DNA of 64,000 bases from Methylophaga nitratireducenticrescens (GTDB lineage: Bacteria > Pseudomonadota > Gammaproteobacteria > Nitrosococcales > Methylophagaceae): NCBI RefSeq assembly GCF_000260985.4, contig NC_017857.3, positions 2,046,001 through 2,110,000 on the forward strand. Reading direction: 5' to 3'. Every line of letters starts with the position of its first letter. Within the stretch, counting starts at the first letter, position 1. The notes beneath the pieces were generated by a model. That model saw only the letters and a program-made list of their open reading frames with translations. It made no database searches and was not told where the DNA came from. The translations under genes were made by a program, and so were the position numbers. Positions 3,381-39,311 of this stretch are shown here, in pieces.

Positions 3381-5039
3381 ATGGCTCAATACGTATATAG
3401 CATGAACCGCGTTGGCAAAATCGTGCCGCCCAAACGCGAAATTTTAAAAGATATTTCCCTGTCCTTTTTCCCTGGTGCCAAAATTGGTGTATTGGGTTTA
3501 AATGGCTCTGGTAAGTCTACCCTGCTTCGCATTATGGCTGGTGAAGATAAAGATTATATTGGCGAAGCCAGACCAATGCCGAATATGAAGGTCGGGTATC
3601 TGCCTCAGGAACCTGAGCTGGATGACAACAAAACCGTTCGGGAAATCGTTGAAGAATCAGTATCTGATGTTAAAGCCGCTTTGGATGAATTGGATGCGAT
3701 TTATGCAGCTTACGCCGAACCGGATGCAGACTTTGATGCGTTAGCCAAAAAACAGGGCGAGCTGGAAAACCTGATCACCGCCAAAGATGGTCATAATCTG
3801 GACAATGCCCTGGAACGTGCAGCGGATGCGTTACGCCTGCCACCCTGGGATGCCAAAGTCGCTGTGTTATCCGGTGGTGAGCGTCGTCGTGTTGCGTTAT
3901 GCCGTTTATTACTCGATCACCCGGACATGTTATTGCTTGATGAGCCGACTAACCATCTCGATGCTGAATCGATTGCGTGGATTGAACGCTTTCTGCAGGA
4001 ATATCCTGGTACTGTTGTTGCCATTACCCATGATCGTTATTTCCTTGATAACGCGGCTGGCTGGATTCTGGAACTGGATCGTGGTCGTGGTATTCCTTAT
4101 GAAGGCAATTACTCTTCCTGGCTGGAACAGAAAGATCAACGTCTGGCCCAGGAATCCAAACAGGAAGCCTCACATAATAAAGCCATTCAGGCTGAATTAG
4201 AGTGGGTTCGTCAGGGAGCCAAAGGCCGTCAGGCAAAATCCAAGGCGCGTTTGAAACAGTTTGAAGAAATGAATTCAAAAGAATTTCAAAAGCGTAATGA
4301 AACCCAGGAAATCTATATTCCACCTGGCCCGCGTCTGGGCGATAAGGTCATTGAACTGCATAACGTCACTAAATCCTATGGCGACAAACTGTTGTTTGAA
4401 GATCTCAGTCTGACGATTCCACCGGGTGCAATTGTCGGCATTATCGGTCCTAATGGCGCGGGTAAATCTACCTTGTTCCGCATGATTACTGGTGAAGAAA
4501 AACCTGATTCCGGTGAAATCGAAATTGGCAGCACAGTGCAACTGGCTTATGTAAACCAGGCACGTGAACTGGATGGCAAAAAAACCGTATTTGAAGAAAT
4601 AGCCGATGGTGCAGATATTATTACCGTCGGAAATTATCAAACCCTTTCTCGTGCTTATTGCGGCCGATTTAACTTTAAAGGTTCAGATCAGCAGAAGTTT
4701 GTGAAGGATCTCTCCGGCGGTGAGCGTAATCGTCTGCATATGGCGAAACTGCTTAAAGAAGGCGGCAACGTTTTATTACTCGACGAACCGACCAATGACC
4801 TGGACGTTGAAACTTTGCGGGCATTGGAAGAAGCCATATTGGCCTTCCCGGGCTCAGCTGTAGTCATTTCGCATGATCGCTGGTTTTTAGATCGGGTATG
4901 TACCCATATGATTGCCTACGAAGGTGATTCCAGTGTGGTGTTCTTTGAAGGTAATTACAGCGATTACGCCGAAGATTACCGTAAACGCTTCGGCAAGGAT
5001 CATCAGCCGGAACGGATTAAATATCGTCGTATGAATTAG
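3381..5039 (+). CDS. ettA: EttA, energy-dependent translational throttle (ABC-F ATPase)
   Basis: EttA is a soluble tandem ABC ATPase that binds the ribosomal E site and gates the first elongation steps according to the ADP/ATP ratio. The 552 residues have two nucleotide-binding domains. The first has Walker A GLNGSGKST (about residue 38), signature LSGGERRR and Walker B LLLDEPTNHLD. The second has GPNGAGKST (about 355), LSGGERNR and LLLDEPTNDLD. The charged inter-domain linker and the EttA arm region lie as in E. coli EttA (555 residues). I place the start at the ATG giving MAQYVYSMNRVGK, because E. coli EttA begins almost identically. A TTG four codons upstream is less likely. The gene is monocistronic. 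Confidence 0.95.
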   Translation: MAQYVYSMNRVGKIVPPKREILKDISLSFFPGAKIGVLGLNGSGKSTLLRIMAGEDKDYIGEARPMPNMKVGYLPQEPELDDNKTVREIVEESVSDVKAALDELDAIYAAYAEPDADFDALAKKQGELENLITAKDGHNLDNALERAADALRLPPWDAKVAVLSGGERRRVALCRLLLDHPDMLLLDEPTNHLDAESIAWIERFLQEYPGTVVAITHDRYFLDNAAGWILELDRGRGIPYEGNYSSWLEQKDQRLAQESKQEASHNKAIQAELEWVRQGAKGRQAKSKARLKQFEEMNSKEFQKRNETQEIYIPPGPRLGDKVIELHNVTKSYGDKLLFEDLSLTIPPGAIVGIIGPNGAGKSTLFRMITGEEKPDSGEIEIGSTVQLAYVNQARELDGKKTVFEEIADGADIITVGNYQTLSRAYCGRFNFKGSDQQKFVKDLSGGERNRLHMAKLLKEGGNVLLLDEPTNDLDVETLRALEEAILAFPGSAVVISHDRWFLDRVCTHMIAYEGDSSVVFFEGNYSDYAEDYRKRFGKDHQPERIKYRRMN

Positions 5040-5143
5040 TTTGAATGATTAACCACAGAGACACAGAGATTTTTTATCCGCAGATTACGCAGATTTTCGC
5101 AGATATAAATATGCGCTTTAATGCGAACGTAGATTTGTTCCAG

Positions 5144-5357: not shown

Positions 5358-5459
5358 CTTTTCTATATCTTCTATCTATTAATCTGCGAAAATCTGCGTA
5401 ATCTGCGGATAGGTTTCTTTCAAACCTCTGTGCCCTCTGTGTCTTATATGGACTCCCTC

Positions 5460-5670
5460 AATGTTGTCAATTAAGTTACGCGATTAAACGAGAATAGATG
5501 CGAGCTTATATACGGGCTCTGATTGAGTAGCGAACTCGGCCCTATCATGTATTCGCCCCTTCATGACTCATCTCTGTGGCGGCATGTATTGCCTTGACAC
5601 AAAACAGTCTCTTGAAGGTCGGTCTTACCCGTTCACTAACGCCTTAATTGACCAACATATCCTGGACTTT
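5460..5670 (-). ncRNA. candidate bridge RNA/seekRNA of the IS110-family element
   Basis: This non-coding tail of the insertion sequence folds by eye into two stem-loops when read on the minus strand. Target loop: an outer stem (5613-5618 with 5558-5563, then 5606-5609 with 5565-5568), a 12 x 12-nt internal loop (5594-5605 and 5569-5580) and an apical hairpin GGCA/UGCC (5590-5593, 5581-5584). One loop strand holds UUUUGUGUC and matches the flank at 5435-5443 with two G-U wobbles. The other holds CCACAGAGA, complementary to the flank at 6788-6796. Donor loop: stem GCGA/UCGC (5553-5556, 5500-5503), a 10 x 10-nt loop and apical stem GGGC/GCCC. Its strands hold AUACAU (as 6783-6788) and AUAUAAG (complement of 5443-5449), i.e. 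both element ends. The bridge RNA role is established for IS110 relatives; its boundaries here are not defined. Confidence 0.75.
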
Positions 5671-6708
5671 CTATCCAGCCAGCAAAGCTGGCTGGTAGTC
5701 GGTATTCTTTTTCAGCATGGCATAAGCCGTTCTGACGGTCTTGTTAGCCAAGGCTATCGCCGTGACCTTCTTACCTCGGCGGTGGATTAATTGCTTTAAC
5801 CATTGCTCTTTGATGGTTTTTGCTTCTCGCTTGTCCAAGCTTCGGATAACCGCTAATGCCCCTTCAAATAGGACACTACGCAGCTTTTTATCACCCGCCA
5901 ACTTGCTAATAGAGCCGAGCTTTTCCTTTCCTCCAGAGCTGTGCTGTACTGGGGTGACCCCCACGCAGGCGGCCGCCTGTCGGGCATTGTTAAAATGCCC
6001 CGGCTGGCTCAGTGCCAGTTTCAACAGCATGGCGCCAACCGGACCGACGCCTTCTAAAGCGCTTAAACGACGGCACACCGGATCTTGCCTGACCGCTTCT
6101 TTGAAACGTTTCTCTAAGGCATCAACATGGGCGAAAAACGCTCTCAGTTGCTGGTATTGGTGGTAAAGCGCTTCACGGTAAAAATCCGGCAATCCATTTT
6201 CGGCGTCTTCTACTATTTCAGGCACACGTCGTAGCAACGCGGCATCGCCTTTATTGATCGGATGGCCTAGCTCCAGTAACTGATCGCGCAATTGCTTGGC
6301 CAGGGCAACTTTTTGCCGAACCGCCAAGTCGCGCATCATCGTGATACCTTGCTGACATTGCTCTTCCAGTGTGATGGTTCGGCTCGATTTGACTGCCGGT
6401 TGCAAGGCGGCCAGGCCAATCGCTATCGCATCATTGGCATCTGTTTTATGGCCTTGCAAAAACGCTTTTACCCGTCGTGCAGACATCGCTTTAATGCTGT
6501 GCCCGCATGTCTTGGCGAAACGTGCCCAGTAATGGGTTCCACCGCAGGACTCCATCGCTACTAGCGAGACAGGTTCGTTGACTAATAGCGCTATCAGCTT
6601 TGAGCGGTTAACTTGCTTATTCCAAATGACCTGTCCTCTGGAGGACAACTTGCACACCTGAAAAACATTTTTTGCGAGGTCTATCGCGATTACATTAGAC
6701 TCAATCAT
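5671..6708 (-). CDS. IS110-family transposase (DEDD recombinase)
   Basis: This 345-residue recombinase has an N-terminal RuvC-like DEDD domain. The first acidic residue is in IAIDLAKNVFQV (about residue 8), the glutamate in MESCGG (about 53), and the last aspartates in KTDANDA (about 90). A helical linker follows, then the C-terminal IS116/IS110/IS902 domain, with GVGPVGA at about 222 and the serine-containing HSSGGKEKLGSISK near 265, where the family's catalytic serine lies. Both active-site halves are present and the frame is intact, so the enzyme may be functional. I chose the ATG giving MIESNVIAIDLAKN; an upstream start would add nine unlikely residues. Relatives move DNA as a circular intermediate guided by an RNA from the element. 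Confidence 0.93.
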   Translation of the reverse strand: MIESNVIAIDLAKNVFQVCKLSSRGQVIWNKQVNRSKLIALLVNEPVSLVAMESCGGTHYWARFAKTCGHSIKAMSARRVKAFLQGHKTDANDAIAIGLAALQPAVKSSRTITLEEQCQQGITMMRDLAVRQKVALAKQLRDQLLELGHPINKGDAALLRRVPEIVEDAENGLPDFYREALYHQYQQLRAFFAHVDALEKRFKEAVRQDPVCRRLSALEGVGPVGAMLLKLALSQPGHFNNARQAAACVGVTPVQHSSGGKEKLGSISKLAGDKKLRSVLFEGALAVIRSLDKREAKTIKEQWLKQLIHRRGKKVTAIALANKTVRTAYAMLKKNTDYQPALLAG

Positions 6709-6802
6709 GTATGGACTCCTTATGTGTAAAAGCAAGCTGCTAACTCGCTTATTACGTTATCCCCCCTAGGGGGAGGGAGTCCATACATCTCTGTGGTTTA
6801 TG

Positions 6803-8503
6803 TCAATCTTTCAAAGGTTTATGCATCATCTCAGGTGTACGTTCAGCACCGAGAATGCCGACACGGATTAGAAAGTCGCCAAAATGCTCATCTTGCTCAC
6901 GTTCGGCAGCAAACTGTTCGATCATCGGTTTCAGCGTATTCAGGATGGTGGTTTCATCCACATTTTCCAGATACAGTCGATTCATTCGCTGCCCACTGAA
7001 ATCTGCTCCCAGATTGAGATTATAGCGACCTATCGCCTTGCCTGTTAACGCGATTTCACCCAGATAAGGTCTGGCACAGCCATTAGGACAGCCGGTAATT
7101 CGGATATTAATGAATTCTTCCGGCAAGCCGGCATCACTCATAATTTTTTCCAGTTTACTCAGAAATTCCGGAAGATAACGCTCTGACTCAGCCATTGCCA
7201 GGCCACAGGTAGGAAGAGCAACACAAGCCATCGAATTTAAACGTAATGCTGGACGTCGCTCTCCAATATCAAGTTGATACTGTTCGACCAGTTGCTCAAT
7301 AACCGATTTTTGCTCAGGACTGATATTGGCAATGATCAAGTTCTGGTTACACGTCATACGAAACTCACCAGTATGAATTTTGGCAATTTCACGCAGGGCC
7401 GTTCGTAATTGCAGCGTTTCATTATCCACAATCCGCCCACTGTAAAGATATAAGGTCAAGTGCCATTGACCATCTTCACCCTGAATCCAGCCAAATCGAT
7501 CTCCATTACGCAATAATTCATAAGGTCTGGCAGCTGCCATAGCTTCCCCATGATATTCGGTAAATTTTTCGTTAAACCAGTCAATACCGTGGTCATCGAT
7601 GGTGTATTTAAAACGGGCGTGACCTCTGTTATTACGATCACCATAATCACGCTGAATAGCGGCAATCGCTTCACACACTTCAACAATTTTATCCTTGGTT
7701 ACAAAACCTGCCATGGTGGCCAGGCGCGGAAAGGTTGCCGTTTCACCGTACGTCATCCCCATGCCACCACCAACAGCAACGTTAAAGCCAACTAACTCTT
7801 CATTTTCGATAATGGCAATTAACGCAATATCATTAGCCAACACGTCGCAATCATTTTCCGGAGGAATGGCGATGGCGATTTTAAATTTCCGGGGTAGATA
7901 ACGCTCTCCGTAAAATGGCTCTTCGGCTTTTTCAGGTTGATAAACGCATTGCTCACCCAGCCAGACTTCAGCATAGGCTCCAGACTGCCAGCACAAATGA
8001 TCACTGATAGCCTTTGAAATTTGATGAACTTCCGCATGTACTGACGATTGATGAGGATTGACGTTGGTCACCACATTACGGTTTACGTCGCCACAAGCTC
8101 CTTTGGTATCCAAATGCAAGGCATTGATCTGCTGCATTAGAGAACGCATATCTTGTTTCAGCACTTCATGATATTGAAATGTCTGGCGGGTGGTAATTCG
8201 TAGCGTACCATTTGAACAATCATCAGTAATCGCATCTAACCCCAGCCATTGCTGTGGTGTGACAACCCCACCAGGAATGCGTAGCCGAACCATAAAAGAA
8301 TATAACGGTTCCAGCTTTTGCCGACGACGTTCATCACGTAGATCCCGATGATCCTGCATATAAGTGCCATGGAACTTGGTCAGTTTGGTGTCATCATCCG
8401 AAATTGCACCGGTGACGTTATCATCCAATCCTTCGGAAATAGTGCCACGAAGGTAGCGACTGTCGAGTTTGAGTTGTTCAGCTTCAGGTAATTTTGTATT
8501 CAT
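6803..8503 (-). CDS. cysI: Assimilatory sulfite reductase (NADPH), hemoprotein beta subunit
   Basis: CysI reduces sulfite to sulfide with six electrons at a siroheme coupled to a [4Fe-4S] cluster. The 566 residues match E. coli CysI (570) in length. The four cluster cysteines appear as CVALPTC (about 425-431) and CPNGC (about 470-474), and the siroheme-binding arginine-rich segments (RITTRQTFQYHEV, ACGDVNRNVV) are in place. It follows cysJ with the overlapping TAATG, so the two subunits are translationally coupled. No cysH or siroheme gene is in the window. The stop codon lies only about 5 bp from the repeat element with the insertion sequence, which is on the same strand and may receive read-through. 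Confidence 0.96.
   Translation of the reverse strand: MNTKLPEAEQLKLDSRYLRGTISEGLDDNVTGAISDDDTKLTKFHGTYMQDHRDLRDERRRQKLEPLYSFMVRLRIPGGVVTPQQWLGLDAITDDCSNGTLRITTRQTFQYHEVLKQDMRSLMQQINALHLDTKGACGDVNRNVVTNVNPHQSSVHAEVHQISKAISDHLCWQSGAYAEVWLGEQCVYQPEKAEEPFYGERYLPRKFKIAIAIPPENDCDVLANDIALIAIIENEELVGFNVAVGGGMGMTYGETATFPRLATMAGFVTKDKIVEVCEAIAAIQRDYGDRNNRGHARFKYTIDDHGIDWFNEKFTEYHGEAMAAARPYELLRNGDRFGWIQGEDGQWHLTLYLYSGRIVDNETLQLRTALREIAKIHTGEFRMTCNQNLIIANISPEQKSVIEQLVEQYQLDIGERRPALRLNSMACVALPTCGLAMAESERYLPEFLSKLEKIMSDAGLPEEFINIRITGCPNGCARPYLGEIALTGKAIGRYNLNLGADFSGQRMNRLYLENVDETTILNTLKPMIEQFAAEREQDEHFGDFLIRVGILGAERTPEMMHKPLKD

Positions 8504-39226: not shown

Positions 39227-39311
<85 letters not shown>

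What the first reader, a model, noticed from the sequence alone, without database searches (positions are those of the whole stretch)
5500..5618. Hand-foldable bridge RNA/seekRNA with both target- and donor-binding loops in the tail of an IS110-family element
Read on the minus strand, the non-coding tail after the transposase stop forms two consecutive stem-loops. The first has a 12 x 12-nt internal loop. One strand (UUUUGUGUC, 5596-5604) pairs with the minus strand of the left flank (5435-5443, two G-U wobbles). The other (CCACAGAGA, 5571-5579) pairs with the plus strand of the right flank (6788-6796). The second has a 10 x 10-nt internal loop. One strand has AUACAU, identical to the element end at 6783-6788; the other has AUAUAAG, complementary to the opposite end at 5443-5449. 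Pairing of one guide with each DNA strand, for both target and donor, is the logic of IS110-family bridge RNAs. Here the RNA lies downstream of the transposase, as expected for the IS1111 branch. All matches were found by eye; chance matches of 6-7 nt are possible for the donor side.
Basis: partly seen in the sequence, partly recalled or inferred. Interest (0 to 1): 0.85.

Follow-up and report, generated by a model that had tools for sequence, protein, structure and literature searches.

The report
RNA-guided insertion sequence with four guides
A small mobile DNA element carries a short RNA whose two loops match both its landing site and its own ends; comparison with relatives shows the matches are real, which makes this a well-supported new example of a recently discovered kind of programmable DNA mover.

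Summary
Confirmed. An IS1111-branch element lies at about 5443-6788 (minus strand), transposase 5671-6708. Its tail RNA is 5498-5622: a covariance model built from 16 relatives, without the window, finds exactly that stretch (119 bits) and three places in the genome, all in copies of the IS. Decisive test: covariation. Over 58 distinct element/flank combinations the left target guide matches its own flank in one register with a sharp 8-nt footprint and the right guide pairs over 9 nt; 0 of 5000 permutations reach the observed scores. Two 98%-identical relatives differ by one guide base and the compensating target base. Likely mechanism: RNA-guided recombination at an AG core in the dispersed repeat CCACAG-AG-ACACAGAG. 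It is a new member of a published kind (IS1111 seekRNA / bridge RNA). Less familiar: covariation evidence for donor guides in the IS1111 branch, both loops mirrored relative to IS621. RNA production and protein binding are inferred, not shown.

The parts
5443..6788 (-). IS1111-branch insertion sequence, about 1346 bp including one copy of the AG core; boundary ambiguous by up to 3 nt because AGA is shared by both junctions
   Evidence: Three copies in the genome, two identical; ends conserved in relatives; AG at both junctions in 34 of 58 combinations
5671..6708 (-). transposase / recombinase, 345 aa (ATG start; the ORF can extend to TTG at 6735)
   Evidence: Pfam DEDD_Tnp_IS110 and Transposase_20; NCBIfam NF033542 'IS110 family RNA-guided transposase', 244 bits against cut-off 140
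5498..5622 (-). guide RNA unit (seekRNA / bridge RNA): target hairpin then donor hairpin
   Evidence: Covariance model built from 16 relatives without the window: 119 bits, E 5.8e-33 (rough); the only other listed match in the window has 8.1 bits, E 1.1. RNAalifold on 27 sequences: 17 pairs, 15 with double-sided changes
5596..5604 (-). right target guide (UUUUGUGUC), pairs with the top strand (transposase orientation) of the target right half, window 5435-5443, two G-U
   Evidence: covariation
5571..5579 (-). [quoted passage not shown]
   Evidence: best match lies at register -22 to -24 in 58 of 58 combinations, ties going to the 3'-most place
5547..5552 (-). right donor guide (AUACAU), pairs with the left end ATGTAT (6783-6788)
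   Evidence: the 94% copy L003 has AUACAUC, which would extend the pairing by one
5505..5511 (-). left donor guide (AUAUAAG), same sequence as the right end 5443-5449, so pairs with its bottom strand
   Evidence: 6-7 of 7 identical in 80 of 80 elements over ten right-end sequences
6773..6784 (-). left subterminal inverted repeat ATGGACTCCCTC
5448..5459 (-). right subterminal inverted repeat GAGGGAGTCCAT
6789..6796 (-). left half of the target, CCACAG plus AG core
   Evidence: intact CCACAGAGACACAGAG occurs 10 times in the genome
5435..5442 (-). right half of the target, ACACAGAG
5465..5470 (-). TTGACA, candidate -35 box; with TATAAG (16 nt on) or TAAGAT formed across the circle junction (18 nt on) a candidate junction promoter
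   Evidence: best TTGACA match 15-19 nt before the right-end TATAnn is 6/6 in 8 of 80 elements, 5/6 in 9, 4/6 in 26, 3/6 in 37; shifted control 5/6 in 1.9%, 4/6 in 14%, none 6/6. Function inferred from published IS1111 work

Best explanation
This is an autonomous IS1111-branch insertion sequence that chooses its site with an RNA. Inferred steps: (1) The transposase excises the element as a circle, joining right end to left end (CCATATA-AG-ATGTATGG), and a promoter at or near that junction transcribes the transposase and then the tail. (2) The roughly 125-nt tail RNA binds the transposase. [quoted passage not shown] (4) In its second hairpin, AUAUAAG and AUACAU pair in the same way with the element's own joined ends. 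(5) The recombinase exchanges strands at the shared AG core, without target duplication. Shown here by comparison: which bases are guides, that they change with target and with ends, the register and length of the target guides, the conserved target-hairpin fold, and the AG core of this lineage. Inferred from published IS110/IS1111 work: RNA production, binding, circle and strand exchange.
For: Target guides: 58 distinct combinations, LTG 7.60/9 against 4.34 permuted, RTG 7.64/9 against 6.03, 0 of 5000. In 27 clusters the LTG footprint is 8 nt (21-27 of 27 matched, then 12, 3, 8) and the RTG footprint 9 nt (19-26 of 27, then 8, 7, 10). 49 of 58 combinations have both LTG >= 6/8 and RTG >= 7/9. 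Single-base co-change: L021/L022 elements (1296 of 1320 aligned columns identical) have guides UUUGACGGU / UUUGAUGGU beside targets ACCGTCAAG / ACCATCAAA. Both guides change together in L063/L068. Donor guides: LDG 6.80/7 against 6.01 (35 distinct combinations), RDG 5.46/6 against 5.02 (52 combinations), 0 of 2000 each. Structure: 15 of 17 consensus pairs with double-sided changes. A model without the window finds 5498-5622 and, in the genome, only the three IS copies (150 of 470 first-look candidates were scored). All three copies lie in the same repeat. AG at both junctions in 34 of 58 combinations.
Against: Nine of 58 combinations fall below the thresholds: L065 and L072 on the left guide; L014, L018, L061, L073, L088, L090 and L097 on the right guide. 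L073 pairs poorly in each frame tried; L014, L018 and the three Pseudomonas copies have no explanation here. Permutations do not remove shared ancestry; the 27-cluster version only reduces it. The two target guides of the window element can pair with each other. The window's right donor guide has one base (AUACAUG) that many relatives and L003 do not have (AUACAUC). L003 has AA, not AG, at its left junction. The RNAalifold consensus did not keep the outer stems of the donor hairpin. No RNA or protein data.
Confidence: 0.93

Rival explanations
1. Only the first hairpin is a guide. The second hairpin is a structural or protein-binding part, and the ends are recognised by the protein through the subterminal inverted repeats; the donor-loop likeness is historical.
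For: Siddiquee et al. (PMC11187229, parts read) describe target matches for IS1111 and say that which domain binds the IS ends is not known; they report that the short seekRNA (70-100 nt) was sufficient for transposition of ISEc11. The subterminal repeats are long and conserved.
Against: LDG follows the right end through ten different end sequences in 80 of 80 elements, and RDG follows the left end (e.g. ATGTA/UACAU, ATGGTG/CGCCAU, ATGAGA/UCUCAU). Durrant et al. (PMC11208160, section 12) also report donor complementarity in IS110 and IS1111 elements by inspection.
Confidence: 0.12
2. The matches are an artefact: a hairpin whose arms are CACAGAG / CUUUGUG-like would match both sides of a direct-repeat target by chance or shared repeat ancestry.
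For: In the window element LTG and RTG do pair partly with each other in the minimum-energy fold, and the target is a direct repeat.
Against: Relatives whose targets are not direct repeats show the same register and lengths; single-base co-change in L021/L022.
Confidence: 0.01
3. It is a decayed or silent IS copy whose RNA no longer works.
For: One base of the right donor guide differs from the usual one; no expression data.
Against: Two copies are identical over 1344 bp at different places, which means recent movement or gene conversion; ORF open; fold and guides intact.
Confidence: 0.1

Closest known systems
IS1111-family elements with seekRNA (ISEc11, ISPa11, ISKpn4, ISPst6; Siddiquee et al. 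2024, PMC11187229)
   Same: 345-aa DEDD transposase, subterminal inverted repeats, non-coding region downstream of the transposase, top-strand guide 5' of bottom-strand guide, insertion into a defined target (ISPa11, like this one, in a dispersed repeat)
   Different: Different target (CCACAGAGACACAGAG). Donor guides identified here by covariation; that paper, in the parts read, reports target matches only. Which ISfinder entry it matches could not be checked.
IS621 and other IS110-group elements with bridge RNA (Durrant et al. PMC11208160; Hiraizumi et al. PMC11208158)
   Same: Two loops, four guides, overlapping the core; the CT core of IS621 reads AG on the other strand, which is the core found here
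   Different: RNA downstream, not upstream, of the recombinase; order of guides mirrored in both loops; long subterminal inverted repeats; the two solved relatives found by sequence (IS621, ISCro4) match weakly and over residues 130-338 only (E 1.7e-7 and 3.2e-8)
Nearest relatives found: Bowmanella L026 (63% aa), Amphritea MAG L062 (62%), Pseudoalteromonas L018/L019 (60%)
   Same: Ends, donor loop and hairpin fold nearly the same; L062 and L026 also sit in CCACAGAGA- or CCACGAAGA-type repeats
   Different: Guides differ with the target

Membership tests
IS1111 family (seekRNA type) | DEDD transposase with Transposase_20 C-terminal domain, 330-350 aa | tested here: met
   345 aa, both domains; D10, E53, D90, D93 invariant in the 7 aligned sequences (that these form the DEDD set is recalled)
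IS1111 family (seekRNA type) | GL-P----S(T)G motif in the C-terminal domain | tested here: met
   GVTPVQHSSG; V in place of L, five of the other six aligned sequences have GLTP
IS1111 family (seekRNA type) | subterminal inverted repeats, 7-17 bp | tested here: met
   ATGGACTCCCTC / GAGGGAGTCCAT, 12 of 12
IS1111 family (seekRNA type) | longer non-coding region downstream of the transposase, with the RNA in it | tested here: met
   RNA 5498-5622, transposase ends at 5671 on the same strand
IS1111 family (seekRNA type) | RNA strand pairing the target top strand lies 5' of the one pairing the bottom strand | tested here: met
   RTG 5596-5604 precedes LTG 5571-5579 on the minus strand; the registers used for the 58 combinations have the same order
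IS1111 family (seekRNA type) | guides change with the target | tested here: met
IS1111 family (seekRNA type) | RNA co-purifies with the transposase; circular intermediate | not testable with these tools
   needs experiments
IS110 group (IS621 type) | RNA in the left end, upstream of the recombinase; bottom-strand guide first | tested here: not met
   RNA is downstream and the order is reversed
Rfam families | match at gathering score | tested here: not met
   Only a tRNA elsewhere in the window

The most novel reading that the evidence does not exclude
In the IS1111 branch the same RNA guides both target choice and recognition of the element's own ends, and both loops are mirrored relative to IS621. 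In each, the 5' strand pairs with the right top half and the 3' strand with the left bottom half. Since the core of this lineage is AG (CT on the other strand, the IS621 core), the two families may use one ribonucleoprotein geometry with both DNA partners turned by 180 degrees. In both, the RNA gene then sits beside the end that the 3' strand of its donor loop reads. That would explain the reversed guide order reported for IS1111 without a second mechanism.
Probability: 0.5. Interest if true: 0.65.

Novelty: new member of a known kind. Interest (0 to 1): 0.46.

Why it matters
It shows that the guides of this class can be read from raw sequence and supported by comparison alone. It also supplies a series of naturally re-aimed elements, down to a one-base change in target and guide. 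The donor-guide covariation bears on a question left open for IS1111 in the paper read: how the IS ends are recognised. If IS1111 recombinases read both partners by RNA, they may be reprogrammable on both sides, like IS621.

Tried and rejected
Rfam gave no family for this RNA. The viral-contig scan found no relative. Among 58 genomes (the own genome and 57 relatives) only one relative had a match at E <= 1e-40, at 37% identity; among 369 genomes of the class four others had one at E <= 1e-70. The comparison therefore rests on plasmids (475 records matched, 8 fetched) and the species-genome collection. A first DNA alignment included a wrongly placed stretch of L013 and was redone without it. 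RNAalifold did not keep the outer stems of the donor hairpin that the single fold shows; the donor loop therefore rests on covariation with the ends, not on stem covariation. An always-on outward promoter at the right end was considered and not claimed: the spacing fits a -10 box across the circle junction as well. I first took the core as GA; the relatives show AG. A text search for CACAGAGACACAGAG in the paper library found 0 papers.

Rows left out: of 95 loci tested, 23 had no recognisable pair of ends by the first motif, 7 lay at contig edges, and of the remaining 65 four had no clean donor-loop anchor, leaving 61 elements (58 distinct combinations) for the target test. In one search ties for the best place went to the 3'-most one. 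For the donor test 19 of the 27 rejected loci (23 plus 4), with ends found by inverted repeat, were added (80 elements); eight were not used (L030, L031, L032, L059, L075, L076, L095, L102). For L079, L082, L086 and L094 a longer stretch of tail was searched, after I had looked at them. The search for related loci returned the best 80 of 182 relatives. The model search was given 41 loci, none of them used to build the model and not all of the loci held; 30 of 41 gave a match at E <= 0.1 (31 matches, L071 twice). The 11 without are L032, L059, L076, L081, L085, L095, L099, L101, L102, L104 and L105; six of these form one group with other ends (L081, L085, L099, L101, L104, L105).

Full report
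What is there. The stretch 5500-5618 is the tail of an insertion sequence on the minus strand. Its transposase (5671-6708, 345 aa) has the two IS110-type domains and scores 244 bits against a cut-off of 140 for NCBIfam NF033542, named 'IS110 family RNA-guided transposase'. It has a 12-bp perfect subterminal inverted repeat (6773-6784 and 5448-5459). The element lies between an ABC-F-like ATPase ORF that ends at 5039 and a sulfite reductase-like ORF (6803-8503, minus); these two names are by my reading of the ORF translations, no family search was run. Three copies are in the 3.135-Mb genome: the window copy, one identical over 1344 bp, and one with 1268 of 1344 aligned columns identical.

The observation. 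The RNA folds as two hairpins. One detail differs: in the minimum-energy fold the two target guides pair partly with each other, because the target is a direct repeat. So within this one element the two target matches are not independent, and relatives are needed. A random-site control on the window element alone gave 0.09% for the left match, 3% for the right match and none for both in 20000 draws.

Relatives. Of 95 loci tested, 72 had recognisable ends; after dropping seven at contig edges and four without an anchor, 61 elements remained, 58 of them distinct in guide region and flanks. The ends and the donor hairpin are nearly constant; the target hairpin changes.

Target guides. The best 9-base match of the left flank lies at the same place in the RNA, 22-24 nt before the donor hairpin, in 58 of 58 combinations (ties go to the 3'-most place, and the lowest score is 5 of 9). 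With registers fixed, mean scores are 7.60 of 9 (left) and 7.64 of 9 (right), against 4.34 and 6.03 when flanks and RNAs are permuted; 0 of 5000 permutations reach either. With 27 guide clusters the result is the same (7.63 against 4.24; 7.56 against 5.97; 0 of 5000). The clusters were made without gaps, so L021/L022 and L053/L056, which are near-identical, count apart. The footprint has sharp edges: 8 nt on the left, 9 nt on the right. 49 of 58 combinations satisfy both thresholds (LTG at least 6 of 8, RTG at least 7 of 9). Of the nine that do not, L065 and L072 fail on the left guide, and L014, L018, L061, L073, L088, L090 and L097 on the right. In the Vibrio group, right-guide pairing is better in a frame 3 nt further into the right end for L065, L066, L069, L070 and L072 (8 to 10 of 10 pairs), but L073 stays poor.

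Natural re-aiming. L021 and L022 are 98% identical (1296 of 1320 columns) and differ at one base of the right guide (UUUGACGGU / UUUGAUGGU); their right flanks are ACCGTCAAG and ACCATCAAA. L022 has a broken transposase gene. L063 and L068 differ in both guides and in both flanks. Conversely, the Vibrio breoganii copies L043-L051 share one guide region and sit in one motif at different places.

Donor guides. With 19 further elements, 80 were compared. In 67 of 80 the left donor guide is identical to the right end at 7 of 7 bases, and at 6 of 7 in the other 13, over ten different right-end sequences. The right donor guide follows the left end as well, for example UACAU with ATGTA, CGCCAU with ATGGTG, and UCUCAU with ATGAGA. 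Permutations over distinct combinations: 6.80 against 6.01 (35 combinations) and 5.46 against 5.02 (52 combinations), 0 of 2000 each. The right donor guide is the weaker: 6 of 6 pairs in 37 of 80 elements, 5 of 6 in 43, and in L092 the best-scoring place is out of register. The window copy has AUACAUG where the 94% copy L003 has AUACAUC.

Structure and specificity. RNAalifold on 27 sequences gives 17 pairs, 15 with changes on both sides; these are the stems of the target hairpin and the tip of the donor hairpin, not the stems next to the donor guides. A covariance model built from 16 relatives without the window finds 5498-5622 at 119 bits; the only other listed match in 64 kb has 8.1 bits. 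In the genome it gives three hits, all in the IS copies (150 of 470 first-look candidates were scored). Of 41 loci not used for the model, 30 gave a match, some with quite different ends; 11 gave none, among them one group of six with other ends.

Core and target. AG is found at both junctions in 34 of 58 combinations, that is in 34 of the 38 whose base after CCATATA is not C; the other four are AG/AA twice, AA/AG (L003) and AG/GG. The 20 others do not share a dinucleotide at these positions, apart from CG in two. For the window the target is therefore CCACAG-AG-ACACAGAG. It occurs uninterrupted 10 times in the genome, 14 times with up to two mismatches, against 0 for the reversed control. It is part of a dispersed repeat, often in inverted pairs. 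All three IS copies lie in it.

How it most likely works is set out under Best explanation. Guide identity, register, fold and core are shown by comparison; transcription, binding and strand exchange are inferred from published work. Papers seen: Siddiquee et al. PMC11187229 (abstract and outline, first two of four parts of Results, sections 13 and 14, and passages), Durrant et al. PMC11208160 (passages and section 12), Hiraizumi et al. PMC11208158 (passages). In Siddiquee et al. the order of guides in IS1111 is top-strand first, as here. Durrant et al. [quoted passage not shown] I found no covariation analysis of IS1111 donor guides in what I read of these papers, and the listings of the searches named no further paper on it; that is not proof that none exists.

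Mirrored order. In IS621 the 5' strand of each loop pairs with the left bottom half and the 3' strand with the right top half (PMC11208160). Here it is the reverse in both loops. Turning both DNA partners by 180 degrees makes the two cases alike, and turns the AG core into CT, the IS621 core. In IS621 the RNA lies in the left end, which the 3' strand of its donor loop reads; here the RNA lies in the right end, which again the 3' strand reads. This is an inference. Against it: other lineages in the set have other core bases, and in IS621 the discontinuous donor guide is the 3' strand, whereas here the 5' strand is the weaker one.

Verdict. The finding is real and correctly interpreted. It is a new, well-documented member of a known kind, not a new kind.

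Noticed in passing
window 5053-5068 (+) and 5435-5442/6789-6796; G000 sites: The target is one end of a mosaic dispersed repeat (CCACAGAGACACAGAGGGCACAGAG, often followed by ATCCGCAGATTACGCAGAT-like sequence), frequently as inverted pairs about 100-480 bp apart; 13 of 38 genomes searched, the own one included, hold the exact 16-mer.
   Followed up: partly
L129, L130, L131 (genome G011): In a same-genus genome the repeat forms direct arrays with units of about 190-240 bp. No paper in the library holds the text CACAGAGACACAGAG.
   Followed up: partly
L026, L029, L062: Relatives at 57-63% aa identity in other genera sit in the same or a sister repeat (CCACGAAGA..., CCACCGAGA..., CCACAGAGA...), with guides altered to match in part.
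   Followed up: partly
L057, L058, L061, L064: These relatives sit in what look like REP-type palindromes (GTAGCAGA or GTGGGAGA, then GCGnnnTTTAC-like arms); the clade may favour dispersed extragenic repeats of each host. Copy numbers were not counted.
   Followed up: no
L022, L024: Transposase gene broken, but ends and RNA are still recognisable; in L022 the guides still match the flanks. Such copies could be moved in trans. Described only.
   Followed up: no
L031 2432-5372; L071 5584-5711 (-): L031 has about 1.6 kb of extra DNA between transposase and RNA (possible nested insertion); L071 carries a second RNA of this family on the other strand.
   Followed up: no
window 5584-5589: The apical loop region of the target hairpin also contains AUACAU, a second copy of the donor-guide string; L003 has no such string there.
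   Followed up: no
window 39230-39311 (-): tRNA gene, the only Rfam match in the window.
   Followed up: no
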